Origin: Actinomyces bowdenii
GTDB lineage: Bacteria > Actinomycetota > Actinomycetes > Actinomycetales > Actinomycetaceae
NCBI RefSeq assembly: GCF_017592395.1
Contig: NZ_JAGFOU010000016.1
Location: 1-64,000, forward strand
DNA: 64,000 nucleotides
Direction of reading: 5' to 3'
The position numbers were made by a program, and so were the translations under genes. Below the pieces are notes generated by a model. The model saw only the letters and a list, made by a program, of their open reading frames with translations, did no database searches and was not told the origin of the DNA. Shown piece by piece: positions 8,342 through 19,725 of the stretch. Each line of letters starts with the position of its first letter. Positions within the stretch are counted from its first letter, which is position 1.

Positions 8342-9883
8342 ATGGACCCACTCGTTATCGCCATCGACTCCTCCACCACCAGCACGAAGGCGATCGTCGT
8401 CGATACGACCGGCAGGATCCTCGCGCTGGGAAGGCAGGGCATCGACCTGCTCTCCCCCCAGCAGGGCTTCGGCGAGCACGACCCGCGGCAGTGGTGGACC
8501 TCCACCCGCGACGCGATCGGCCGGGCCCTGGCCCAGCTCACCCCGGTGGACAGGGAGCGGGTCCGGGCCCTGGGCATCACCCACCAGCGCGAGTCCTTCG
8601 CCCCGTTCATGGCGGATGGCACGCCGGTGCGCGATGGGATCCTGTGGCTGGATATCCGCGCCGCCGAGCAGGTCGAGCGCCTGGGCAGTGCGCGGATCCA
8701 CGAGCTCTCCGGCCGCCCGGCGGATGTCACCCCGGCGCTGTACAAGATGGCCTGGCTCAAGGAGCACGAGCCGCAGTCCCTGGAGTCGGCCGACCGGGTG
8801 ACGACGGTCTCGGGGTATCTCACCTTCTGCCTCACCGGCCAGTGGGTGGACTCCGCCGCCTGCGCGGATTCCCTGGGGCTGTCGAATATCAGGACCCTGG
8901 ACTACGACGACGGCCTGCTGGGCATTGCGGGGGTGCGGCGCGAGCAGATGGCGGATCTGGTCAAGCCCGGGCAGGCCCTGGGCCGGCTCAGGGGCGAGCT
9001 CGCCCAGGAGTGGGGGATTGGGGAGATCCCGGTCATCGCCGCCTGCGGGGATGGCCAGGCCGCCGGGGTGGGGGCGGCTGCGATGACCCCTGATACCGCC
9101 TTCCTCAATATGGGGACGGCGGTGGTGGCGGGGGTGCCGTCACGGGAGTACCGGTATGAGAAGCTGTTCAGGACCGAGGCGGCGGGGGTGCCCGATACCT
9201 ATATCCTGGAACTGGTGCAGAACTCGGGAGCGTATCTGTCGTCCTGGTTCCGTCAGGCCTTCGGCAGGCCGGAGCTGGCGGGCGCCCCCGACCCGGAGCT
9301 GGAGGCGCTGGCGGCGGCCAGGCCCCCTGGCAGTGGGGGCCTGGTGACGATGCCCTACTGGGGGGCAGTGCAGTCGCCCCATTGGGATCCGGTGGCGCGC
9401 GGCGGGGTGGTGGGCTGGCGGGGCACGCATGGCAGGGGCTCGATGTACCGCTCGATCCTGGAGGGAACGAGCCTGGAGATGGCCCGCTCGCTGCGCAAGC
9501 TGGAGTCTTCCACCGGGTTGGCGCTCAGGGAGATCCGCGGCATGGGTGGCGGTATGCGCTCGCCCTTGTGGCGCCAGATCATGACTGATGCTATTGGCCT
9601 GCCGATCACCAACTGCAAGGAGGAGGAGATCTCGGCGCTGGGGGCCGCGGTGATCGCGATGGCGGCCACGGGGGTCTTCGGTGATGCGGAGGTGGCGACG
9701 GCGGCCTCCCACATGTGCCACTTCACGGATGTCACGGAGCCGACTATGGAGAACCATGAGATCTATGCCGAGCTCTCGGCGATCCAGGATCGGCTGTACG
9801 GGGACCTGCGCGAGGTCAATGCACTGCTCCACGACTTCTCGCGCAGGCACCCCGACGCGGAGCTCACTGGTATCGAGGACTGA
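8342..9883 (+). CDS. FGGY-family carbohydrate kinase (xylulokinase/glycerol kinase-like)
   Basis: A 513-residue FGGY kinase. The phosphate-1 motif is AIDSSTTSTKAIVVDTTG; THQRESF matches the glycerol/xylulokinase substrate region; NMGTAVV is the phosphate-2 motif and GMGGGMRSPLWRQIMTDAIG the adenosine-binding motif. The ATG at 8342 was chosen over an upstream GTG because GAGG lies 8 nt before it. It is the last gene of the operon. Together with the other three genes it gives two kinase/dehydrogenase pairs, which would suit a polyol route in which the alcohol is phosphorylated first and then oxidised, as in erythritol catabolism. The substrate cannot be read from sequence. Confidence 0.78.
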   Translation: MDPLVIAIDSSTTSTKAIVVDTTGRILALGRQGIDLLSPQQGFGEHDPRQWWTSTRDAIGRALAQLTPVDRERVRALGITHQRESFAPFMADGTPVRDGILWLDIRAAEQVERLGSARIHELSGRPADVTPALYKMAWLKEHEPQSLESADRVTTVSGYLTFCLTGQWVDSAACADSLGLSNIRTLDYDDGLLGIAGVRREQMADLVKPGQALGRLRGELAQEWGIGEIPVIAACGDGQAAGVGAAAMTPDTAFLNMGTAVVAGVPSREYRYEKLFRTEAAGVPDTYILELVQNSGAYLSSWFRQAFGRPELAGAPDPELEALAAARPPGSGGLVTMPYWGAVQSPHWDPVARGGVVGWRGTHGRGSMYRSILEGTSLEMARSLRKLESSTGLALREIRGMGGGMRSPLWRQIMTDAIGLPITNCKEEEISALGAAVIAMAATGVFGDAEVATAASHMCHFTDVTEPTMENHEIYAELSAIQDRLYGDLREVNALLHDFSRRHPDAELTGIED

Positions 9884-9904
9884 CTGGGGCCCGCAGGGCC
9901 GTCC

Positions 9905-10018
9905 TGGGCTGTCGCGGATGGTGAGGGCCTCTTGGAGGGTGATGGGCCAGGTGTGGTCGGTCCAGGCCCGGATCCAGGTCACAGCCTTGTCTACCGGCAG
10001 GGTGCGGAAGTCACTCAT
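9905..10018 (-). pseudogene. Truncated tenth copy of the immunity-like paralogue (Imm10 remnant)
   Basis: This begins exactly like its upstream siblings (MSDFRTLPVDKAVTWIRAWTD and so on, about 38 residues) and overlaps the stop of Imm9 by 8 nt, but homology stops after the TIRDS stretch near 9905, about 20 nt before the convergent kinase gene ends. The reading frame stays open but then runs antisense to the kinase gene, with no further family resemblance. It is best read as the deleted 3' edge of the array, where a recombination event joined the array to the polyol operon. Confidence 0.75.
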
Positions 10019-10517
10019 AGTCCTCCATTGCCTGGTCGTACTCCTCCGAGATCTTAGTCCGCCAGGGTGAGTCGATATCGATGCCGATGAGTGGAGCTGT
10101 GAGGATGATTGAAATGGAGACCTTGTTGGGTAGGGTCCAGCGGAGTTGGGATGATGCGTATGGTCCTTTTCCTGGCTGGCCGGGTCCCCAGAGCTGCTGC
10201 AGGGCAGTAGCATACTGAGAGTAGGCTGTGATTGACATCTGGATGGTCTGTTCGTTTTCCTCGGGGCAGGGTGTTGTTGAAAGTTTAAAATTTACTCCTT
10301 TGATTCCGAATTCGTTGCTTCGGGAGATAATGCCGTCCTCTTTGCCGTTCGTGGAGAGTTTTGTGGTGAAGTATCGGGGTTCTTGGTGGGAGGGCGTCCA
10401 TCCGAGACTGTCGCGGATGGCGAAGGCTTCCTGAAGACTCATGGGCCATGCGTGGTCGGTCCAGGCCCGGATCCAGGCGATGGTCTCCTCGATGGGGAGG
10501 GTGCGGAAGTCACTCAT
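10011..10517 (-). CDS. Immunity-like paralogue Imm9 (group C)
   Basis: 168 residues, ninth gene after the toxin. It shares the conserved family N-terminus (FRTLPxEExxxWIRAWTDxxWP, then LQEAFAIRDSLGW) and the conserved C-terminus (DSPWRTKISEEYDQAMEDYE). The middle reads EPRYFTTKLSTNGKEDG and SNEFGIKGVNF, grouping it with Imm4, Imm5 and Imm6. No signal peptide or membrane segment is visible, so it should be cytosolic. The family appears to correspond to Pfam DUF6301 (name from memory). The role as toxin-neutralising protein is inferred from position only. Start and stop overlap neighbours by 8 nt. Confidence 0.75.
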   Translation of the reverse strand: MSDFRTLPIEETIAWIRAWTDHAWPMSLQEAFAIRDSLGWTPSHQEPRYFTTKLSTNGKEDGIISRSNEFGIKGVNFKLSTTPCPEENEQTIQMSITAYSQYATALQQLWGPGQPGKGPYASSQLRWTLPNKVSISIILTAPLIGIDIDSPWRTKISEEYDQAMEDYE

Positions 10518-11016
10518 AGTCCTCCATTGCGCGGTCGTACTCTTCCGAGATCTGGGTGCGCCAAGGTGAATCAATGTCAACGCCGACGAGAACATTGGTT
10601 CGAATAATTGAGACAGAAACCCTGTTAGACAATTTCCAGCGAAAATGAACCGTCTCTCGCGTATTCGTATGAATCTGTCTCGACCCCCATATCCTATCGA
10701 GATTCTTAGCGTACAACAATAGTGCTTCATTCGCTGCGCGTATATTATGCTCGTTAATTTCAAGTGAGGGAGGGGAGGAAAGATCGAAACTGATGCCTTT
10801 GATGTCGAACTCGTTACTTTTTGAGATGTACCCTCCCCAGTGTCCGTTTTGAGATAGTGGGGTGGTGAAAAAGTCAGGCTCATTGGGAAACGGCCTCCAT
10901 CCCAGGTTGTTGCGGATAGCCAGGGCCTCGTGGAGGGTCATTGGCCATACGCGGTCGGTCCAGGCCCGGATCCAGGTCACTGCCTCCTCTACCGGCAGGG
11001 TGCGGAAGTCACTCAT
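10510..11016 (-). CDS. Immunity-like paralogue Imm8 (group A, near-identical to Imm2)
   Basis: 168 residues. The middle region (NEPDFFTTPLSQNGHWGGYI, then SNEFDIKGISFDLSSPPS) defines group A with Imm1 and Imm2. It differs from Imm2 (13480-13986) at only about three residues, and the DNA is nearly identical over some 500 bp at an offset of 2970, which shows a recent duplication or gene conversion. The gene is noticeably AT-richer than its surroundings. Translational coupling is likely, since its ATG lies inside the stop region of Imm7. Confidence 0.78.
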   Translation of the reverse strand: MSDFRTLPVEEAVTWIRAWTDRVWPMTLHEALAIRNNLGWRPFPNEPDFFTTPLSQNGHWGGYISKSNEFDIKGISFDLSSPPSLEINEHNIRAANEALLLYAKNLDRIWGSRQIHTNTRETVHFRWKLSNRVSVSIIRTNVLVGVDIDSPWRTQISEEYDRAMEDYE

Positions 11017-11512
11017 AGTCCTCCATTACCTGGTCGTAATCCTCCTTGAGTTGGGTGCGCCAGGGCGAGTCGATGGTGACGCTTATGAGGTTGTCAAGGC
11101 CAAATATTGATACTGATGTCCTGTTTGGCAGCGTCCAACTAACTTGGAGCACTCCGAATTCTTCTGACGATTCTCCATGGCTCCATAACTGCGTTAATGC
11201 AGCCACATACTGAGAATAGGCTGCACTCGATAATTGCGCTACTTTCACGTTGTCATCAGAAGGGTATTTGGAGGAGAGGTGAAAACGTACGCATTTAACG
11301 CCTGACTCGCTGCTTTCTAGGATGAATCCATCCTCTTTTCCGTCGTTGGAGAGTCTGGTTGCGAACAACGTAGGGTCTTGTGACGATGGTCTCCAGTCAA
11401 GGTGGTCTCGAATAGCGAAAGCCTCCTGCAGACTGATTGGCCAGGTGTGGTCGGTCCAGGCCCGGATCCAAGCAATGGCTTCTTCGACGGGGAGGGTGCG
11501 GAAGTCACTCAT
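11009..11512 (-). CDS. Immunity-like paralogue Imm7 (group B, close to Imm3)
   Basis: 167 residues. The middle (QDPTLFATRLSNDGKEDGF, ILESSESGVKCVRFHLSSKYPS) defines group B and is shared almost residue for residue with Imm3 (12984-13487), apart from about 15 substitutions concentrated at the N-terminal third and the very end. A start seven codons upstream is possible, but the conserved MSDFRTLP beginning at 11512 fits all siblings and overlaps the preceding gene by 8 nt. Confidence 0.77.
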   Translation of the reverse strand: MSDFRTLPVEEAIAWIRAWTDHTWPISLQEAFAIRDHLDWRPSSQDPTLFATRLSNDGKEDGFILESSESGVKCVRFHLSSKYPSDDNVKVAQLSSAAYSQYVAALTQLWSHGESSEEFGVLQVSWTLPNRTSVSIFGLDNLISVTIDSPWRTQLKEDYDQVMEDYE

Positions 11513-11996
11513 AGTCCTCCATCGCCCGATCATACTCCTCTGTGACCTGAGTTAACCACGGTGACTCAATTTTTACGCCGATACGTGTACCTGTTAGGAT
11601 GATAGAAATAGAGACCTTATTGGAAAGGACCCAACGAAAGTGCGACTTTCCGTATGTAGTTCCCGGACCCCAAAGGTTTTGCAGGGCGTTGATGTAATGC
11701 GAATACGCTGCGTGAGCTATCTTCTTCTGTTCAATTTCCTCTGAGGAAGGAGTTGACGATAGGCTAAAGTTGACACCCGTAATCCCAAACTCATTGCTTC
11801 GGGAAATTCGTCCGTTCTCTCTTCTGTTTAGGGACAGTTTGGTTGTAAAGAAACGTGGTTCATGGGGTGATGGGACCCATTCGAGGCGGTCGCGTATGGC
11901 GAAGGCTTGTTGGAGGGTGATGGGCCAGGTGTGATCGGTCCAGGCCCGAATCCACGTTACGGCCTCGTCCACCGGCAAGGCTCGGAACTTACTCAT
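11505..11996 (-). CDS. Immunity-like paralogue Imm6 (group C)
   Basis: 163 residues, the shortest intact copy. It begins MSKFRALPVDEAVTWIRAW and ends ESPWLTQVTEEYDRAMEDYE. The centre (EPRFFTTKLSLNRRENGRI, SNEFGITGVNFSLSSTPSSEE) is close to Imm9, including the shared stretch NKVSISIIL near the end, but with a deletion of a few residues around residue 130 (LWGPGTTYGKSHF). It overlaps both neighbours by 8 nt. Confidence 0.76.
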   Translation of the reverse strand: MSKFRALPVDEAVTWIRAWTDHTWPITLQQAFAIRDRLEWVPSPHEPRFFTTKLSLNRRENGRISRSNEFGITGVNFSLSSTPSSEEIEQKKIAHAAYSHYINALQNLWGPGTTYGKSHFRWVLSNKVSISIILTGTRIGVKIESPWLTQVTEEYDRAMEDYE

Positions 11997-12516
11997 AATC
12001 CTCCATCACTCGATTGTACTCCTCCTTGAGCTGAGTTCGCCATGGCGAGTCGATATTAACACCGATGAGAGCGTTGACTCTGCTAATGGAGATAGAGACT
12101 CCGTTATGCAGTGTCCAGCGACAGAGTGAGGCTCCATCCGTGTCCGTTGTGAGCTTTCCTCTTCCCCATGATTGTTCCAGTGAACCGATGCACTGTGAAT
12201 ACGAGGTAGCCGCGTTAGCGATGTTGCGATCATCCTTGCCGACTCTGGGAAATGATGAGAGGTTAAAACTGACTCCCTTGATCCCGAACTGGTTGCTCTG
12301 GAGGATTAGTCCATCCTCTTGGCCATTCATGGATAATTTTGTGATAAAAAAATGCGCATCTTTAGGTGATGGTGTCCAGCCGAGGGAATCGCATACGGAG
12401 AGGGCGTCCTGAAGAGTCATCGGCCAGGTGTGGTCGGTCCAGGCCCGGATCCACGTCATAGCTTCCTCTACCGGGAACGTGTGGAACTCAGTCGTTACGT
12501 CCCACGATCCTGTCAT
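11989..12516 (-). CDS. Immunity-like paralogue Imm5 (group C, atypical start)
   Basis: The family N-terminus here reads VTTEFHTFPVEEAMTWIRAW, with no ATG at the usual place. The nearest in-frame ATG (12516) lies eight codons upstream and inside the preceding gene, giving 175 residues and a 29-nt overlap; CAGGA lies just ahead of it. The core (KDAHFFITKLSMNGQEDGL, SNQFGIKGVSFNLSSFP) is a divergent group C sequence. The conserved end is PWRTQLKEEYNRVMEDYE. The shifted start correlates with the abnormal C-terminus of Imm4. Confidence 0.7.
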   Translation of the reverse strand: MTGSWDVTTEFHTFPVEEAMTWIRAWTDHTWPMTLQDALSVCDSLGWTPSPKDAHFFITKLSMNGQEDGLILQSNQFGIKGVSFNLSSFPRVGKDDRNIANAATSYSQCIGSLEQSWGRGKLTTDTDGASLCRWTLHNGVSISISRVNALIGVNIDSPWRTQLKEEYNRVMEDYE

Positions 12517-12991
12517 ATTCCTGGGTGATCTGAGTGAGCCAGGGGGATTCAATTTCGATGGTAATGAGACCGTTCATGCCAAATATAGATACTGATAGCC
12601 CGTTTGGCAACGTCCAACTTGAGTCAGTCACTCCATCACTTTCTGATGAGTCTCCGGGTCCCCATAGTTGTCGTAAGGAAGAGACGTATTGAGAGTAGGA
12701 AGAATGAGATAGCCTGTTGATTTGATCGTTATCGTCAGACGTGCATCTAGAGGAAAGCCTGAAGCGTACACCTTTGATGCCGAATTCATTGCTCCGGAAG
12801 ATGATGCCGTCTTCTTTTCCGTCGATGGATAGTTTGGTGGTGAAGTACCTGGGTTCCTGCGATGAGGGCTGCCATCCGAGACTGTCGCGGATGGCGAAGG
12901 CTTCCTGAAGACTCATGGGCCAGGTGTGGTCGGTCCAGGCTCGGATCCAGGCGACAGCCTCGTCTATCGGTAGGGTACGGAACTTACTCAT
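12488..12991 (-). CDS. Immunity-like paralogue Imm4 (group C, diverged C-terminus)
   Basis: 167 residues. The N-terminus and centre are typical of group C (EPRYFTTKLSIDGKEDGII, FRSNEFGIKGVRFRLSS), whereas positions 100-150 (LWGPGDSSESDGV, SSWTLPNGLSVSIFGMNGLI) resemble group B, so the gene looks mosaic. It ends QEYDRIVGRND instead of the usual AMEDYE, so the GGAGGACTATGAG element that overlaps the next start is missing, and Imm5 uses a different start. Confidence 0.74.
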   Translation of the reverse strand: MSKFRTLPIDEAVAWIRAWTDHTWPMSLQEAFAIRDSLGWQPSSQEPRYFTTKLSIDGKEDGIIFRSNEFGIKGVRFRLSSRCTSDDNDQINRLSHSSYSQYVSSLRQLWGPGDSSESDGVTDSSWTLPNGLSVSIFGMNGLITIEIESPWLTQITQEYDRIVGRND

Positions 12992-13487
12992 AGTATTCTG
13001 CCGCCCGTTCGTACTTCTTTTTGAGCTGAGTTCGCCACGGCGAGTCGATGGTGACGCTGATGAGGTTGTCAAGGCCAAATATTGATACTGATGTCCTGTT
13101 TGGCAGCGTCCAACTAACTTGGGGTACTCCGAGTTCTTCTGACGATTCTCCATGGCCCCATAACTGCGTTAGTGTAGCCACATACTGAGAATAGGCTGCA
13201 CTCGATAATTGTGCGACCTTCACGTTGCCATCAGAAGGGTATTTGGAGGAGAGGTGAAAACGTACGCATTTAATGCCTGACTCGCTGCTTTCTAGGATGA
13301 ATCCATCCTCTTTTCCGTTGTTGGAGAGTCTGGTTGTGAATAATGTGGGGTCTTGTGGCGATGGTTTCCAGCCAAGGTGGTCTCGAATAGCGAAATCCTC
13401 CTGCAGACTGATTGGCCAGGTGTGGTCGGTCCAGGCCCGGATCCAGGTTACAGCCTCGTCTACCGGCAGGGTGCGGAACTCACTCAT
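12984..13487 (-). CDS. Immunity-like paralogue Imm3 (group B, close to Imm7)
   Basis: 167 residues. The central and C-terminal parts (QDPTLFTTRLSNNGKEDGF, ESSESGIKCVRFHLSSKYPS, VSWTLPNRTSVSIFGLDNLI) match Imm7 almost exactly. The end is changed to QLKKKYERAAEYYE, so the embedded ribosome site before Imm4 is degenerate. Starts at ATG 13487, overlapping Imm2 by 8 nt. Confidence 0.76.
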   Translation of the reverse strand: MSEFRTLPVDEAVTWIRAWTDHTWPISLQEDFAIRDHLGWKPSPQDPTLFTTRLSNNGKEDGFILESSESGIKCVRFHLSSKYPSDGNVKVAQLSSAAYSQYVATLTQLWGHGESSEELGVPQVSWTLPNRTSVSIFGLDNLISVTIDSPWRTQLKKKYERAAEYYE

Positions 13488-13986
13488 AGTCCTCCATTGC
13501 ACGGTCGTACTCCTCCGAGACCTGGGTGCGCCAAGGTGAATCAATGTCAACGCCGACGAGAACATTGGTTCGAATAATTGAGACAGAAACCCTGTTAGAC
13601 AATTTCCAACGAAAATGAACCGTCTCTCGCGTATTCGTATGAATCTGTCTCGACCCCCATATCCTATCGAGATTCTTAGCGTACAACAATAGTGCTTCAT
13701 TCGCTGCGCGTATATTATGCTCGTTAATTTCAAGTGAGGGAGGAGAGGAAAGATCGAAACTGATGCCTTTGATGTCGAACTCGTTACTTTTTGAGATGTA
13801 CCCTCCCCAGTGTCCGTTTTGAGATAGTGGGGTGGTGAAAAAGTCAGGCTCATTGGGAAACGGCCTCCATCCCAGGTTGTCGCGGATAGCCAGGGCCTCG
13901 TGGAGGGTCATTGGCCATACGCGGTCGGTCCAGGCCCGGATCCAGGTCACTGCCTCCTCTACCGGCAGGGTGCGGAACTCACTCAC
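13480..13986 (-). CDS. Immunity-like paralogue Imm2 (group A, GTG start, near-identical to Imm8)
   Basis: 168 residues, starting at GTG (VSEFRTLPVEE) where the siblings use ATG. The body is nearly identical to Imm8 (10510-11016), including the group A stretch NEPDFFTTPLSQNGHWGGYI and LWKLSNRVSVS-like end region (FRWKLSNRVSVSIIRTN). The overlap with Imm1 is 8 nt, with GGAGGACTGTGAG forming both the end of Imm1 and the ribosome site. Confidence 0.77.
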   Translation of the reverse strand: MSEFRTLPVEEAVTWIRAWTDRVWPMTLHEALAIRDNLGWRPFPNEPDFFTTPLSQNGHWGGYISKSNEFDIKGISFDLSSPPSLEINEHNIRAANEALLLYAKNLDRIWGSRQIHTNTRETVHFRWKLSNRVSVSIIRTNVLVGVDIDSPWRTQVSEEYDRAMEDYE

Positions 13987-14491
13987 AGTCCTCCATTGCC
14001 CGATCGTAGTCCTCTTTGATTTGGGTGCGCCAAGGTGAGTCGATAGTGACGTTGATAAGAACATTGGCGCGAATGAGTGAAGTAGATACCTTGTTGGGTA
14101 ACGTCCAACGAAGATGGGTCGTTTTTTGTGTGCTCGTCCTCACTTTCCCCGGTCCCCATAGTTGTTTTAAGGGGCTTGCGTATAGGAAGAGCGCCTCTTC
14201 TGCTGATTGCATGCCACTTTCGTCCATTTCAGGTGACATTGATGGGGGTGAGGAGAGATCGAAGCTGACACCTTTGATTCCGACATCCTTGCTCTGCAAA
14301 ATGTACCCTCCCCAGTGTCCGTTTCGAGATAGTGGGGTGGTGAAAAAGTCGGGCTCATTGGGGAATGGTTTCCATCCTAGGTTGTCGCGGATGGTGAAGG
14401 CTTCCTGAATACTCATGGGCCAGGTGTGATCGGTCCAGGCCCGGATCCAGGCGATGGCTTCCTCGACGGGGAGGGTGCGGAAGTCGGTCAT
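13979..14491 (-). CDS. Immunity-like paralogue Imm1, directly downstream of the toxin gene
   Basis: 170 residues and the first gene after the PrsW-nuclease protein, separated by 24 nt with an AAGGAAC ribosome site. It begins MTDFRTLPVEEAIAWIRAW; the centre (NEPDFFTTPLSRNGHWGGYI, DVGIKGVSFDLSSPPS) is group A but clearly distinct from Imm2/Imm8, with an extra few residues (MSPEMDESGMQ). Being cognate-adjacent, it is the best candidate for the immunity protein matched to the present toxin domain; the remaining copies may protect against related toxins. This is inference from position. Confidence 0.77.
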   Translation of the reverse strand: MTDFRTLPVEEAIAWIRAWTDHTWPMSIQEAFTIRDNLGWKPFPNEPDFFTTPLSRNGHWGGYILQSKDVGIKGVSFDLSSPPSMSPEMDESGMQSAEEALFLYASPLKQLWGPGKVRTSTQKTTHLRWTLPNKVSTSLIRANVLINVTIDSPWRTQIKEDYDRAMEDCE

Positions 14492-14515
14492 GGGTGTTCC
14501 TTGTGTGGTGGTGGT

Positions 14516-16990
14516 TTATCGAAGGCTGGTGATCTTGTGGTCCATTTTAGCGATGAAGTCTGGTGAGGGGCTGAAGGACTCGGAGTGAACCAGTGAGGTC
14601 TCGCCATGGATGGGGGTCTGGTAGACGTCGGCTCGTAGTGAGGTGCGTCCCTCTTTGATGGACTGCCACAGGTCTGGGTGGTCGTGGAGGTGCTGGATGA
14701 CGCGCTCGTCGCTGAGCATCCGGTCCATGACGTAGTTGGGCGAGCCCTGCGGTGCCCTTATTGACGGATCCAGTTCGCGTAGGGGGTAGGTTTTGTTTGG
14801 CTGGTACCGGCTCTGGCCGCCCTTGTACTCTGGGATGACCAGCTCATCCCCTCTCTGGGAGACGGCGAGGTCATCGACATGGAAGGGCCCGGGCCCCTTC
14901 CCGTCTGGAGGAGTGCGGAAGGCATCAGGTGTACGGTAGCCCTCAACATTGAGAGCATGCCTGCCACCGTGCTCCCCGACACGCTCGGCCGCCCGTCGAG
15001 CCTCAGAACCGTTCTTTGGGATGGATTCAGCGAGTTCTTCTAACTCCCTGATTTCGGCTGGGTTTGCTCCTTTGGCTCGGATATGGGTAACGGCTTCTTG
15101 GAGGCTTTCGTTTCCGAATCTTCCGAGGTCGGTGATGCCGTACTGTCCGGCGATCTCAGCGAATCTGGCTTTGTCGGCGTGCCATGCGGCGGTGGCGTCT
15201 GTGTGCTTGGCGAAGAGCTGGGCCATCTCATCGAGGTGGCTCGGGGTGCGTGCGGCGCGGCTGGTGGCCAGCGCCTCGTATGCTAATCGTGCTCCTCGCT
15301 CCGTGCCCAGGCCCAGGGCGGACCCGGGAACGAAGGTCAGGGCGAAGTCGGCGATGTCCCACAGGAACTGGCCGGGCGTGACGGTAGTGAAATAGTTCTC
15401 CGCCGCCGAGCGGGGATCACGCAGGAACGCAGCCAGCCCCCGCCCATGCCCCAAGAACCAGGTGAGCACTCCCGCCGCCCCCAGGGCGAAGGCGAAGGAG
15501 CCGCCCATCGCCAGGAGCAGGGCCACCGCCCACGCGGTGAACAGGATCTGCGCCAGCGGACCCATATCCGCCCACCACTGGCCCAGGACATCCAGGAGAC
15601 TGGCGAAGAACAGGCCATCGCCCTCACCGCTCATGCTCGGGCCGATGGCCTGGGCCGTCCACAGCCCGTACAGGACGCAGACCAACAGCGCCCCCACCCC
15701 GATGAGCCCCGCAGCCAGGGCGAAACGGCGTCGAGCACCCGGCTCACCGCCGACGGCCGCCTGCGCCATCGCATCGGCGCGCACCCCCCGGACCTGCTCA
15801 GCCATCTCGCGCCCACCAATGATCGCCCACACCCGGCCCCAGCGCAGATCCCCATAGGCCGACACCACCAGGGCCAGATCACTGCGCGCATACCCCGCCC
15901 ACGCCACAGCCCCCACCACCACGGGCCGCACCCAGGCCGGCACCCGCTCCAGGCGCGGATAGCGGAACGAGGGCGCCCCCGGCAGTGTCCACCCATAGAC
16001 CCCCGCCCACGCCCGACGGTGCGCATCCACCAGCTGGCACACCACGAACAGCGCGAAGGCCGCCAGGGCCTCGGTCTGCCCCCACAGGCTCAAGAACCAC
16101 AGCAGGGTGATCCACCACGGCATCCCCTCCACGCCGTCCACCGTCCAGGACCCCCACGCCACCGTCGCATTCCAGCCCGCATGATCGGCGATCACCCAGG
16201 CCAGCATGAGCGCCACCAGCCCCACCGCCGCCACCCGGAACCCGCCGCGCCTGCGCCACAGGGCGATCCCCAGGCCCACCCCGGCGGCCACGATCATCGT
16301 GTGCACCTGATGGCCCACGCTCACCGCATCCGACAGCGCCATGCTGTAGCTGCCCGAGCTCCACGGATTGAGGGAATAGGAGAAGCGCGTCTCCCCCAGA
16401 AGCGACTCCAGCAGGCCCGGGGCCTGGAGCCTGCGCACACCATCCTCGGCCGCCGTGAAACCAGCCCCCAGCGCGAAGCCCAGCAGCGCCCAGTCCACCG
16501 CCGCCAGACGGCGCATCCGCCCCGGGGCCACCACCGCCACCACCGCCAGCGGCACCAGCTTGGCCGGCTCCTCCACGAAGGCCGCCAGCGCCACCATCGC
16601 CCCGTCATCCTCAATGGACAGGCCCCCCAGCCCCGCCACCGCCGCCGTCGCCATCGCGACCAAGAAGGCCCAGGCCACCCCCACCGAGTAGGCCACCGTC
16701 ATCGACCGCCACGCGATCGTGCGCGTGCGCGCCAGGAGCGCCATCGTGCCCAGATTGACCATGAGCACCACCCCCGGCACCAGCGCCACCCACAGCCGCG
16801 GCACCACCAGCAGCGCCAGCAGGAACAAGGGGATCGCCACCAGGTAGAGCGCCCAGACCAGCCGGGCCAGCCCCCGGGCCAAGGACAGATGGCGCTGCCA
16901 CCAGCCCCGGTAGGAGGCGGCAGCCCGCTCCCACAACTCCGGAGGCCGACCCTGATACACCGGGATCCGAACGCTTGTGAGACCGCTCAT
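14516..16990 (-). CDS. PrsW-type intramembrane protease fused to a C-terminal PD-(D/E)xK nuclease-like toxin
   Basis: An 824-residue protein. Residues ~40-560 are polytopic. The first part carries PrsW-family protease signatures: FVEEPAKLVPLAVV (E140, E141, K144), GAGFTAAEDG (E182), HQVH (H227, H230) and ADHAGWN (H270). Further membrane segments follow (~425-560). From ~580 the protein is soluble: an alpha-helical linker, then FHVDDLAV and LVIPEYKGGQSRY (D706/D707, E721, K723), then QGSPNYVMDRML. The EYKGG-QGSPNYV arrangement is that of restriction-endonuclease-fold toxins in polymorphic toxin systems. ATG 16990 was preferred to TTG 16996. No signal peptide or export apparatus lies nearby, so release by the built-in protease is a plausible idea but unproven. 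Nine paralogous putative immunity genes follow. Confidence 0.82.
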   Translation of the reverse strand: MSGLTSVRIPVYQGRPPELWERAAASYRGWWQRHLSLARGLARLVWALYLVAIPLFLLALLVVPRLWVALVPGVVLMVNLGTMALLARTRTIAWRSMTVAYSVGVAWAFLVAMATAAVAGLGGLSIEDDGAMVALAAFVEEPAKLVPLAVVAVVAPGRMRRLAAVDWALLGFALGAGFTAAEDGVRRLQAPGLLESLLGETRFSYSLNPWSSGSYSMALSDAVSVGHQVHTMIVAAGVGLGIALWRRRGGFRVAAVGLVALMLAWVIADHAGWNATVAWGSWTVDGVEGMPWWITLLWFLSLWGQTEALAAFALFVVCQLVDAHRRAWAGVYGWTLPGAPSFRYPRLERVPAWVRPVVVGAVAWAGYARSDLALVVSAYGDLRWGRVWAIIGGREMAEQVRGVRADAMAQAAVGGEPGARRRFALAAGLIGVGALLVCVLYGLWTAQAIGPSMSGEGDGLFFASLLDVLGQWWADMGPLAQILFTAWAVALLLAMGGSFAFALGAAGVLTWFLGHGRGLAAFLRDPRSAAENYFTTVTPGQFLWDIADFALTFVPGSALGLGTERGARLAYEALATSRAARTPSHLDEMAQLFAKHTDATAAWHADKARFAEIAGQYGITDLGRFGNESLQEAVTHIRAKGANPAEIRELEELAESIPKNGSEARRAAERVGEHGGRHALNVEGYRTPDAFRTPPDGKGPGPFHVDDLAVSQRGDELVIPEYKGGQSRYQPNKTYPLRELDPSIRAPQGSPNYVMDRMLSDERVIQHLHDHPDLWQSIKEGRTSLRADVYQTPIHGETSLVHSESFSPSPDFIAKMDHKITSLR

Positions 16991-17014
16991 AATCAATGAC
17001 GCTACAACAGCCGG

Positions 17015-17036
17015 AAGATCACGACAAGATCACGAC
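17015..17036. repeat. Two tandem 11-bp repeats upstream of the toxin gene
   Basis: AAGATCACGAC occurs twice in direct succession, 25 bases upstream of the toxin ATG (which reads leftward). On the coding strand this is GTCGTGATCTT twice. It sits where promoter or leader sequence is expected and could be a regulator-binding site. Confidence 0.4.
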
Positions 17037-17211
17037 AACCCCCGGTACCCGGGTATCACCCCAGGTAGTAAGGCCCTTGCCCGGCGTGCTTCGTCGGGGT
17101 CGGCCCCCGTCGGCCCCGCATTTTCACCGGTCCCGGTCGTGAGGCCCGGGCCCGGCGCCCATGACACCGCCCGGTCGGCTCCGCCCGTCCCGCCCGCCGG
17201 GCCAACCAGCC

Positions 17212-19725
17212 TCAGCCCGCCCGGCGCAGGCGCAGCGAGTTGGCCACCACGATGACGCTGGAGGCCGCCATGGCGGCCCCGGCGATCATCGGGTTGAGAA
17301 GCCCGGCCGCCGCCAGCGGGATCGCCGCCACGTTGTAGGCGAAGGCCCAGAACAGGTTCTGCTTGATCACCCGCAGGGTCGCCCGGCTCACGCGCACCGC
17401 GGCCACCACCGCCTCCAGATCCGCCCGCACCAGGGTGATGTCCGCGGCCTCGATGGCCACATCCGTGCCCGAGCCCATCGCCAGGCCCAGCCCCCGCGCC
17501 CCGGCCTGGGCCAGGGCCGCGGCGTCATTGATCCCATCGCCCACCATGCCCACCACGGCCCCCCGGTCCTGCAGGGCGGCGACGACATCGCGCTTGCCGC
17601 CGGGAAGAACCCCGGCATGCACATCCTCGGCCGCGATCCCCACCTGCGCCGCCACCTCCTGGGCGGCGCGGGGGTTGTCCCCGGTCAGCAGCACCGGGCG
17701 CAGCCCCAGGTCGCGCAGCTGGGCCACGGCCCGGCGCGAGGAGGGGCGCAGCGCATCGCGCACCGCCAGGACCGCCACCGCCCGCAGGTCATCGGCTCCC
17801 GGCCCCGCCCCCACGGCCAGGACCACCGCCGTGGCCCCGGTGCCCTCGGCCTCGCTCAGCGCCCGGGCCAGGGCGCCGGGCAGCTCCACCCCCGATTCGG
17901 CCAGCCAGGCGGGGCGCCCCACGGCCACGGCCCGCCCCTCCACCGTGCCGCTGACCCCGCGGCCCTCGTGGTTGCTGAAGTCCTCCACCGGCGGCAGCGC
18001 CCCCAGGCGCTCACGGGCCCCCGAGGCGATCGCCGCCGCCACCGGGTGCTCCGAGGCGGCCTCGACGGCGCCCGCCAGGCGCAGCGCCCCATCATCCAGG
18101 CCGCTGCTGGCCCCGGCATCCAGGCTCATCCGGCCCGTGGTCACCGTCCCGGTCTTGTCCAGCACCATCGTGTCCAGGGCCCGCGTGGACTCCAGGACCT
18201 CCGGGCCCTTGATGACCACCCCCAGCTGGGCGGCCCGGCCCGTGCCCACCAGCAGTGCCGTGGGCGTGGCCAGCCCCAGGGCGCAGGGGCAGGCGATGAC
18301 CAGGACCGCCACCGCCGCGGTGAAGGCCGCCTGGGCGCCCCCGCCGGCGGCCAGCCACCCCACCAGGGTCAGGGCCGAGAGCACCAGCACCACCGGCACG
18401 AAGACTGCCGAGATGCGGTCGGCCAGGCGCTGGACGGGTGCCTTGCCGGCCTGGGCCTCCACCACCATCGCCCCGATGCGCGCCAGGGTCGTGCCCTGGC
18501 CCACGGCGGTGGCGCGCACCAGCAGCGCACCGGAGGTGTTGACGGTGGCGCCGGTGACGGCGTCGCCCTCCTCGACCTCCACGGGCACGGGCTCCCCGGT
18601 GAGCATGGAGGCGTCCACCGCCGAGCGCCCCTGGACCACCACGCCGTCGGTGGCGATCTTCTCCCCGGGGCGCACCGCGAACAGGTCGCCCACCGCCAGA
18701 TCCTCCACGCTGATGCGCTCCTCGGCGCGCGCCCCGCCGGCGCCCGGGCGCACCCGCGTCACCTCCTTGGCGCCCAGCTCCAGCAGCGCCCGCAGGGCGT
18801 CGCCCGAGCGGTGCTTGGCGCGGGCCTCGGCATAGCGCCCCGCCAGCAGGAAGGTCGTCACCCAGGCCGCCGACTCGAAGTACAGGTGCGGGTGGTGGCC
18901 CTGGGCGCGCGGCAGCAGCTGATCCAGGCCCATCGACATGCGCATGCCCAGCTCCCCGGCGCCCCCCAGCGTCAGGGCCCACAGGCTCCAGGCGGTGGAG
19001 GCCACCACCCCCAGGCTCACCAGGGTGTCCATGGTGAAGGCCCCGTGGCGCGCCCCCGCCCACGCCACCCGGTGGAAGGGCCAGGCCCCCCAGGACGCCA
19101 CCGGCAGGGCCAGGGCAGCCACCACCCACTGCCAGCCGGTGAACTGCAGGGCGGGGAGCATCGACAGGGCCATCACCGGCACCGACAGCACCAGGCTGAC
19201 CAGCAGGCGACGGCGCAGGTCGGCGGCCCGCACCAGGTGCGAGGCGCCCAGCGGCTCCCGGGGCGGCGGGGGCGCGGCCGCCCCGGGAGCCTGGGCGGCC
19301 CCCGCGGGGGGCGGGGCTGCGGCGGAGCCTGCCGGGGCTGCTTGGGCGGCTGCGCCGGAGGAAGCGCCGGCGATCGCGCCATCGGGGCCCGATGGGGCGT
19401 CGCCGGACGGGGCGGGGTCAGTGGAGCCAGTGGCATCCGCGCCGGTCCCGGAGCGGCCGATGACGGCAGCGGTGTAGCCGGCCCGCTCCACGGTGGCGAT
19501 GAGCTCGGCCTCGCTCACGGGCGCGGAGAGCCTCACATGGGCCGACTCGGTGGCCAGGTTGACCGTGGCGCTGACCCCCTCCATGCGCGAGAGCCTCTTC
19601 TCCACCCGGGCCACGCAGCTGGCGCAGGTCATGCCGCCCACGGCCAGGTCCACAGTGGCGCTGGGGCTGCTGGTGGCGCTACCGGCGCCGTGGGGGCCGC
19701 GAGGCTCGAATCCGGGCTCGCTCAT
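17212..19725 (-). CDS. copA: Copper-exporting P1B-type ATPase
   Basis: An 837-residue membrane pump. An N-terminal heavy-metal-associated domain has GGMTCASC (Cys34, Cys37). A Gly/Ala/Pro-rich linker follows, then the membrane domain with the CPC metal site ([14 protein letters not shown]), the phosphorylation loop DKTGTVTTG, the HP motif ([10 protein letters not shown]) and the hinge [10 protein letters not shown]. This set is specific for Cu(I) export ATPases. The chosen ATG 19725 follows GAGGGA; an upstream extension contains no recognised domain. It is the third gene of csoR-copZ-copA on the minus strand and should be induced by copper through CsoR. Confidence 0.95.

What the first reader, a model, noticed from the sequence alone, without database searches (positions are those of the whole stretch)
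9905..16990. PrsW protease-nuclease toxin with a ten-member immunity-like gene array
Seen: an 824-residue protein with PrsW protease motifs (EEPAK, AAED, HQVH, HAGWN) in a multi-pass membrane region and a C-terminal soluble domain with D706/D707, E721-x-K723 followed by QGSPNYV, as in restriction-endonuclease-fold toxins. Nine intact and one truncated paralogous small genes follow in the same direction. Known: polymorphic toxins pair variable C-terminal toxin domains with immunity genes, often several. Inferred: the intramembrane protease may cut itself to release the nuclease, giving a toxin delivered or freed without a classical secretion tag; the array would protect against a set of variant toxins.
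Basis: partly seen in the sequence, partly recalled or inferred. Interest (0 to 1): 0.85.

Follow-up and report, generated by a model that had tools for sequence, protein, structure and literature searches.

The report
Membrane-protease toxin with immunity-gene array
An Actinomyces gene joins a membrane protease to a probable nucleic-acid-cutting toxin domain and is followed by nine related genes that most likely encode its antidotes; this is a known kind of bacterial weapon with what looks like a not yet named toxin-antidote pair.

Summary
An 824-residue gene (16990-14516, minus strand) is followed by nine intact DUF6301 genes and a truncated tenth, head to tail with 8-nt overlaps. Added here: in 49 genomes of the genus the C-terminal domain is followed by DUF6301 at 24 of 27 loci, on PrsW or other N-termini, while 0 of 12 loci of a conserved relative that has lost both the protease and the nuclease motif residues have it, a natural control. 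D706, E721, K723, Q748 and Y753 are kept in 30-31 of 31 sequences. The nine paralogues form one clade, so they arose by local duplication. Self-cleavage, delivery and toxicity are inferred. Verdict: new member of a known kind, with a likely function for DUF6301, plus a conserved doubly dead paralogue noticed on the way.

The parts
14516..16990 (-). toxin gene, 824 aa: N-terminal multi-pass PrsW-like region (about residues 1-590) and C-terminal toxin domain (about 591-824)
   Evidence: open frame; homologues share residues 1 to about 590 with different C-termini; GC falls from 0.716 (residues 1-590) to 0.599 (591-824)
15221..16990 (-). PrsW-like intramembrane protease region with E140 E141 K144, E182 D183, H227, H270, N274
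   Evidence: one of 11 aligned homologues (L140) matches PF13367 at 1.3e-7, the window's own does not; profile without that homologue aligns to a canonical PrsW of the same genome with the four motifs in register, hhalign E 3.7e-4, probability 36%
14519..15220 (-). C-terminal toxin domain, probable PD-(D/E)xK nuclease: E673, D706, E721-x-K723, Q748, Y753
   Evidence: D706 31/31, E721 30/31, K723 31/31, Q748 30/31, Y753 31/31, E673 26/31; no Pfam, NCBIfam or PDB-sequence relative
13979..14491 (-). imm1, DUF6301, 170 aa, 24 nt after the toxin stop
   Evidence: PF19818 E 1.3e-30
13480..13986 (-). imm2, DUF6301, 168 aa, GTG start; 98% identical to imm8
   Evidence: PF19818 E 8.3e-25
12984..13487 (-). 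imm3, DUF6301, 167 aa; 86% identical to imm7
   Evidence: PF19818 E 6.5e-35
12488..12991 (-). imm4, DUF6301, 167 aa; of the nine the one nearest to the DUF6301 protein of the two nearest toxin relatives
   Evidence: PF19818 E 4.6e-33
11989..12516 (-). imm5, DUF6301, 175 aa with the ATG at 12516 (start not certain)
   Evidence: PF19818 E 6e-29
11505..11996 (-). imm6, DUF6301, 163 aa
   Evidence: PF19818 E 1.4e-32
11009..11512 (-). imm7, DUF6301, 167 aa
   Evidence: PF19818 E 5.2e-34
10510..11016 (-). imm8, DUF6301, 168 aa
   Evidence: PF19818 E 3.5e-24
10011..10517 (-). imm9, DUF6301, 168 aa
   Evidence: PF19818 E 7.1e-35
9902..10018 (-). imm10, truncated: homologous for about 38 codons, then runs into unrelated sequence
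   Evidence: 18.1 bits, below cut-off; translation read

Best explanation
A polymorphic toxin-immunity locus of an Actinomyces. The membrane part, a PrsW-type intramembrane protease, is the constant carrier; the C-terminal 234 residues are a probable PD-(D/E)xK-type nuclease toxin; the DUF6301 proteins are its immunity proteins, expected to bind and block the toxin domain. The nine copies arose by tandem duplication in this lineage and diverged mostly in the middle of the protein, giving a homogeneous polyimmunity array that covers the own toxin and probably variant toxins of related strains. Shown here by comparison: modular architecture, pairing of C-domain with DUF6301, loss of the pairing where the motif residues are lost, local origin of the array. 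Inferred: nuclease activity, binding, release by self-cleavage, export, cell-to-cell use.
For: DUF6301 lies 63-394 nt behind the C-domain on the same strand at 24 of 27 loci in 49 genomes; 0 of 12 loci of the motif-lost class (Fisher p 1.2e-7, not corrected for shared ancestry). All 12 of 12 loci of an independent collection scan have it, one in a Propionibacteriaceae MAG (most are the same contigs as in the genus search). Five of five strong C-domain matches among 394 genomes of the class have DUF6301 in the same locus. Same C-domain on PrsW and on T7SS-like N-termini (L180: PF25547 WXG100_2, 41.5 bits). Same N-terminus with Tox-REase-2, SsdA_C deaminase and Tox-REase-5 C-termini. Motif conservation 30-31 of 31. 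C-domain and adjacent DUF6301 distances correlate, r 0.90, n 26. Nine paralogues monophyletic, support 0.986. Middle of the paralogues most divergent (pN 0.11 at the 5' end, 0.50 at codons 81-100).
Against: No fold or family evidence for a nuclease: Pfam, NCBIfam, PHROGs, PDB sequences and hhalign against Tox-REase-2/5 gave nothing above decoys. Three short or degenerate C-matches lack DUF6301. Six weak C-matches outside the genus have no DUF6301 on the same contig. Seven of 34 DUF6301 clusters have no C-domain; at least five of these stand behind PrsW toxins with other C-termini. In the PrsW-only subset (n 11) DUF6301 correlates as well with the N-terminus (r 0.74) as with the C-domain (r 0.75). 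Toxin-proximal imm1 is not the copy most like the relatives' DUF6301 (imm4 is), so which copy is cognate is open.
Confidence: 0.82

Rival explanations
1. The protein is a membrane-anchored, protease-gated nuclease that acts in the producing cell (a stress- or phage-triggered suicide device); DUF6301 proteins are its antitoxins and the copy number sets the dose.
For: A crude hydropathy and charge count puts the C-domain on the cytoplasmic side. PrsW of Bacillus is a stress-responsive site-1 protease (stated in passages of PMC3482391). No secretion genes were sought or found beside the locus.
Against: The same C-domain and DUF6301 partner occur on T7SS-like carriers, and PrsW carriers bear interchangeable toxin ends, as in intercellular toxins. 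PADLOC has no match for the three proteins tested. The topology is uncertain: a weak last hydrophobic segment (542-560) would put the C-domain outside.
Confidence: 0.12
2. The array serves dosage only: many copies of one antidote for one strong toxin.
For: Monophyletic local duplication; imm2/imm8 98% and imm3/imm7 86% identical.
Against: Other pairs are only 46-66% identical, with divergence concentrated in the middle while the ends stay alike; all nine frames are intact.
Confidence: 0.15
3. The C-terminal domain is not a nuclease but some other enzyme or a binding domain with a coincidental D...ExK...Q pattern.
For: No profile match to any REase toxin family; hhalign to Tox-REase-2 aligns D and ExK in register but scores within the range of column-shuffled decoys.
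Against: D, E, K, Q and Y are the most conserved positions in 31 sequences down to 15-20% identity, in the order E, D, ExK, Q, Y that Zhang et al. list for Tox-REase-6, and D, K, Q, Y are lost in 12 of 12 members of the class that also lacks DUF6301.
Confidence: 0.15

Closest known systems
PrsW-dependent polymorphic toxins with Tox-REase C-termini (Zhang et al. 2012, PMC3482391; passages seen)
   Same: N-terminal PrsW domain, short linker, REase-type C-terminal toxin motif, Actinobacteria; same motif order E, D, ExK, Q, Y as listed for Tox-REase-6
   Different: C-domain matches none of the Tox-REase models in Pfam, and its partner is DUF6301, not the Imm49 listed for Tox-REase-6; identity with Tox-REase-6 could not be tested (its alignment is a figure)
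Homogeneous polyimmunity loci (Zhang et al. 2012, PMC3482391; passages seen)
   Same: tandem same-strand paralogues of one immunity family; the paper names an Actinomyces among immunity-rich oral bacteria
   Different: the families it lists as forming homogeneous loci (SUKH, Imm6, Imm11, Imm28, Imm33, Imm36, Imm41) do not include this one in the passages seen
esaG and tipC immunity-gene strings of firmicute T7SS toxins (Garrett et al. 2022, PMC9484751; abstract, outline and passages seen)
   Same: nuclease toxin (EsaD) with up to twelve non-identical tandem immunity genes, conserved blocks with divergent parts between
   Different: other protein families, other carrier (T7SS); recombination between copies was shown there, only suggested here
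PF19818 DUF6301
   Same: the nine paralogues are members
   Different: no function recorded in Pfam; no paper in the held library names it

Membership tests
Polymorphic toxin system | constant N-terminus joined to different C-terminal toxin domains | tested here: met
   same N-terminus with this C-domain, Tox-REase-2, SsdA_C deaminase and Tox-REase-5; a second PrsW toxin in the own genome (C37) ends in Tox-REase-2
Polymorphic toxin system | toxin domain shared between carriers of different secretion routes | tested here: met
   C-domain on PrsW and on long non-PrsW N-termini; WXG100_2 over the cut-off in L180, below it in L104 (17.5 of 27 bits)
Polymorphic toxin system | immunity gene directly downstream of the toxin domain | tested here: met
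   24 of 27 loci against 0 of 12 motif-lost loci
Polymorphic toxin system | toxicity, and neutralisation by the downstream gene | not testable with these tools
   needs expression experiments
PrsW protease family (PF13367) | profile match and the four motifs EExxK, ED/EN, H, HxxxN in transmembrane segments | tested here: met
   indirect: window itself below threshold, one homologue at 1.3e-7, four motifs in register with a canonical PrsW, motif residues kept in 14 of 14 intact toxins
Tox-REase families (Pfam Tox-REase-2, -5, -7 and the rest in Pfam-A) | profile match to a REase toxin family | tested here: not met
   0 of 13 members match one; 0 of 6 distant relatives do
PD-(D/E)xK nuclease superfamily | conserved D ... 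(D/E)xK with Q, on an alpha-beta-beta-beta-alpha-beta core | tested here: inconclusive
   motif met in 30-31 of 31; fold not testable, structure prediction switched off
Homogeneous polyimmunity locus | tandem, same-strand paralogues of one immunity family | tested here: met
   nine DUF6301 genes in one direction

The most novel reading that the evidence does not exclude
PrsW toxins are membrane-held nucleases released by their own protease, and the protease and nuclease are one functional unit: in a syntenic class of 12 genomes both active sites have decayed together while the whole protein stays under purifying selection, so the dead protein was taken over for a new task (for example blocking or decoying live relatives) and needs no immunity gene. 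The live form could then act in its own cell as well as on neighbours.
Probability: 0.2. Interest if true: 0.7.

Novelty: new member of a known kind. Interest (0 to 1): 0.42.

Why it matters
It gives a likely function (immunity to a PrsW- and T7SS-carried nuclease-like toxin) to DUF6301, a Pfam family without one, and marks a toxin clade absent from Pfam and NCBIfam in oral and rumen Actinomyces. The array of nine divergent, locally grown copies beside a single toxin is a compact system for asking how immunity specificity diversifies. The conserved doubly dead relative is a natural test of whether protease and nuclease work as one unit.

Tried and rejected
Direct family searches: toxin against NCBIfam and PADLOC, nothing; toxin against Pfam, only a chance THB match at E 0.2. 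C-domain alignments against PDB sequences: no plausible match; DUF6301 alignment against PDB sequences likewise. hhalign of the C-domain against Tox-REase-2, Tox-REase-5, SsdA, DUF6301 and five column-shuffled decoys: one decoy scored highest, so no fold conclusion is drawn. Tox-REase-7 (PF15649) was sought in 296 genomes for a comparison set, but only two short frames came back. PHROGs gave nothing. Promoter and terminator scans of 9700-17250 found no more sites than shuffles. The idea that the array collects immunity genes of foreign toxins was rejected on the tree. A claim that the PrsW subset shows tighter coupling of DUF6301 to the C-domain than to the N-terminus was dropped: r 0.75 against 0.74.
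Full report
What is there. All nine intact paralogues are DUF6301 (PF19818). The toxin stop and imm1 are 24 nt apart; eight of nine junctions between successive array frames overlap by 8 nt, so translation is probably coupled (inference). No promoter- or terminator-like sites beyond chance were found. The array ends in a tenth copy cut after about 38 codons, about 20 nt from the stop of a convergent frame. The locus is compositionally split: GC 0.716 for toxin residues 1-590, 0.599 for 591-824, and 0.505-0.552 for the nine DUF6301 genes, in a window mostly at 0.66-0.78 elsewhere.

Host.

N-terminus. The window's own N-terminal region does not reach PF13367 (PrsW); one of 11 aligned homologues does (1.3e-7), and it is a second PrsW toxin of the same genome. 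A profile without that homologue and without the dead class aligns to a canonical PrsW of the same genome with EExxK, ED/EN, H and HxxxN in register (hhalign E 3.7e-4, probability 36%, single template). The seven motif residues E140, E141, K144, E182, H227, H270, N274 are kept in 14 of 14 toxins of the comparison outside the dead class. So PrsW membership is good by intermediate sequence and motif, not by direct match. Topology by hydropathy and charge favours a cytoplasmic C-domain but is not firm.

C-terminus. No Pfam or NCBIfam family, and no PDB sequence, matches the domain or its relatives. Its conservation is that of a PD-(D/E)xK enzyme: D706 31/31, E721 30/31 (D in the other), K723 31/31, Q748 30/31, Y753 31/31, and E673 26/31, the five exceptions being distant relatives outside the genus. 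That order, E, D, ExK, Q, Y, is the one Zhang et al. tabulate for Tox-REase-6, which they also find on PrsW and WXG carriers; whether it is the same clade could not be tested. The structure tool was off, so 'nuclease' rests on motif and context.

Modularity. In 49 genomes of the genus, 29 have a match to the toxin. The N-terminal region recurs with Tox-REase-2, SsdA_C deaminase and Tox-REase-5 C-termini, and the C-domain recurs on long non-PrsW N-termini, one of which, outside the genus, carries WXG100_2 above its cut-off (L180). This is the definition of a polymorphic toxin.

Pairing with DUF6301. Of 41 C-domain rows in the genus search, two are further pieces of genes already counted. Of the remaining 39 loci, 12 belong to the motif-lost class. 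Of the other 27, 24 have DUF6301 over its cut-off 63-394 nt downstream on the same strand; the three without are short or degenerate matches. Some of the 24 are broken genes. In the motif-lost class it is 0 of 12, and seven of those 12 genomes have no DUF6301 at all. Seen from the other side, 26 of 33 fetched DUF6301 clusters, and the window as a 27th of 34, lie behind a C-domain or a remnant of one. Of the seven others, L112, L119 and L124 follow PrsW toxins ending in Tox-REase-2 (L112 and L124 tested, L119 by its near-identical tail; in L112 a further small gene of 143 codons lies between), L111 and L128 follow PrsW-SsdA_C toxins, L103 lies beside unidentified frames and L120 was not looked into. 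Beyond the genus, in 394 genomes of the class, five strong C-matches in three genomes all have DUF6301 in the locus (four downstream, one of them with a frame between; one with DUF6301 just upstream), six weak ones do not, and seven of 12 fetched DUF6301 loci have no C-domain. Sequence distances of C-domain and adjacent DUF6301 correlate (r 0.90, n 26), but this partly reflects descent: in the 11 PrsW toxins the N-terminus correlates with DUF6301 as well as the C-domain does.

The array. The nine copies form one clade in a tree of 95 DUF6301 sequences (support 0.986), and several other species have their own expansions. Synonymous difference among the copies is lowest at the 5' end (pS 0.42 in codons 1-20) and near saturation in the middle (0.76-0.86 in codons 81-120), while amino-acid-changing difference rises from pN 0.11 to 0.50 and falls to 0.17 at the end. 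So the 5' part is either exchanged between copies or more constrained, and the middle carries the diversity, which would fit toxin recognition (inference). imm2/imm8 and imm3/imm7 are recent duplicates. The DUF6301 proteins of the two nearest toxin relatives resemble imm4 most (53% and 48%), not the toxin-proximal imm1 (45%, 45%).

The dead class. Twelve genomes carry, in an intact frame of about 838 codons, a relative of the whole toxin in which positions equivalent to E141, K144, E182, H227 and N274 of the protease and E673, D706, K723, Q748 and Y753 of the C-domain are all replaced (12 of 12). The proteins are 89-98% identical, with median dN/dS 0.16 over 66 pairs (N half 0.12, C half 0.24), and four of four compared loci are collinear with the first over their flanks. 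Loss of both sites together, absence of DUF6301 and continued purifying selection are what one expects if DUF6301 protects against the nuclease and the protease serves its release, but the protein's present role is unknown.

How it most likely works. The PrsW part holds the toxin in the membrane and, as Zhang et al. propose for such fusions, may cut and extrude the C-domain; the freed domain cleaves nucleic acid in a susceptible neighbour; DUF6301 proteins in the cytoplasm of the producer and kin bind and block it; the diverged copies widen the range of toxins blocked. The steps shown here are the modular make-up and the pairing; the rest is inference.

Known or new. PrsW toxins, REase toxin ends and polyimmunity arrays are in print (PMC3482391, passages), as are recombining strings of nuclease immunity genes (PMC9484751, abstract and passages). 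Searches for DUF6301, PrsW with Actinomyces, PrsW with polymorphic toxin, PrsW with immunity protein since 2013 and PrsW with intramembrane protease terms found no description of this pair; the library lacks most subscription papers.

Noticed in passing
L017, L018, L020-L022, L024-L030 (12 genomes of the genus); L134-L138 with wider flanks: Conserved relative of the whole toxin with both the protease and the nuclease motif residues replaced (12 of 12), intact frame, purifying selection, syntenic in the four loci compared with the first, no DUF6301 beside it.
   Followed up: partly
L140 (own genome, contig C37, 187-3564): Second PrsW toxin of the same genome, 1126-codon frame, ending in Tox-REase-2 (29.8 bits, cut-off 27.6), near a contig end.
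   Followed up: partly
L122 and L123 (Actinomyces sp. oral taxon 448): Two separate loci with nearly the same C-domain on long repetitive N-termini, each followed by seven or eight DUF6301 genes; stretches of the N-termini are masked.
   Followed up: no
L193 (G079) and L194 (G155): Weak C-domain matches (E 1e-15 and 5e-14) inside open frames of 12041 and 4416 codons, with no DUF6301 on the same contig.
   Followed up: no
L112:6298-6729: 143-codon gene between a PrsW-Tox-REase-2 toxin and a DUF6301 gene, no Pfam family; a candidate immunity gene for Tox-REase-2, for which the 2012 table lists none.
   Followed up: partly
L186:5437-7446: 670-codon frame with two DUF6301 domains around TY-Chap3 domains, a possible multi-domain immunity protein.
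   Followed up: no
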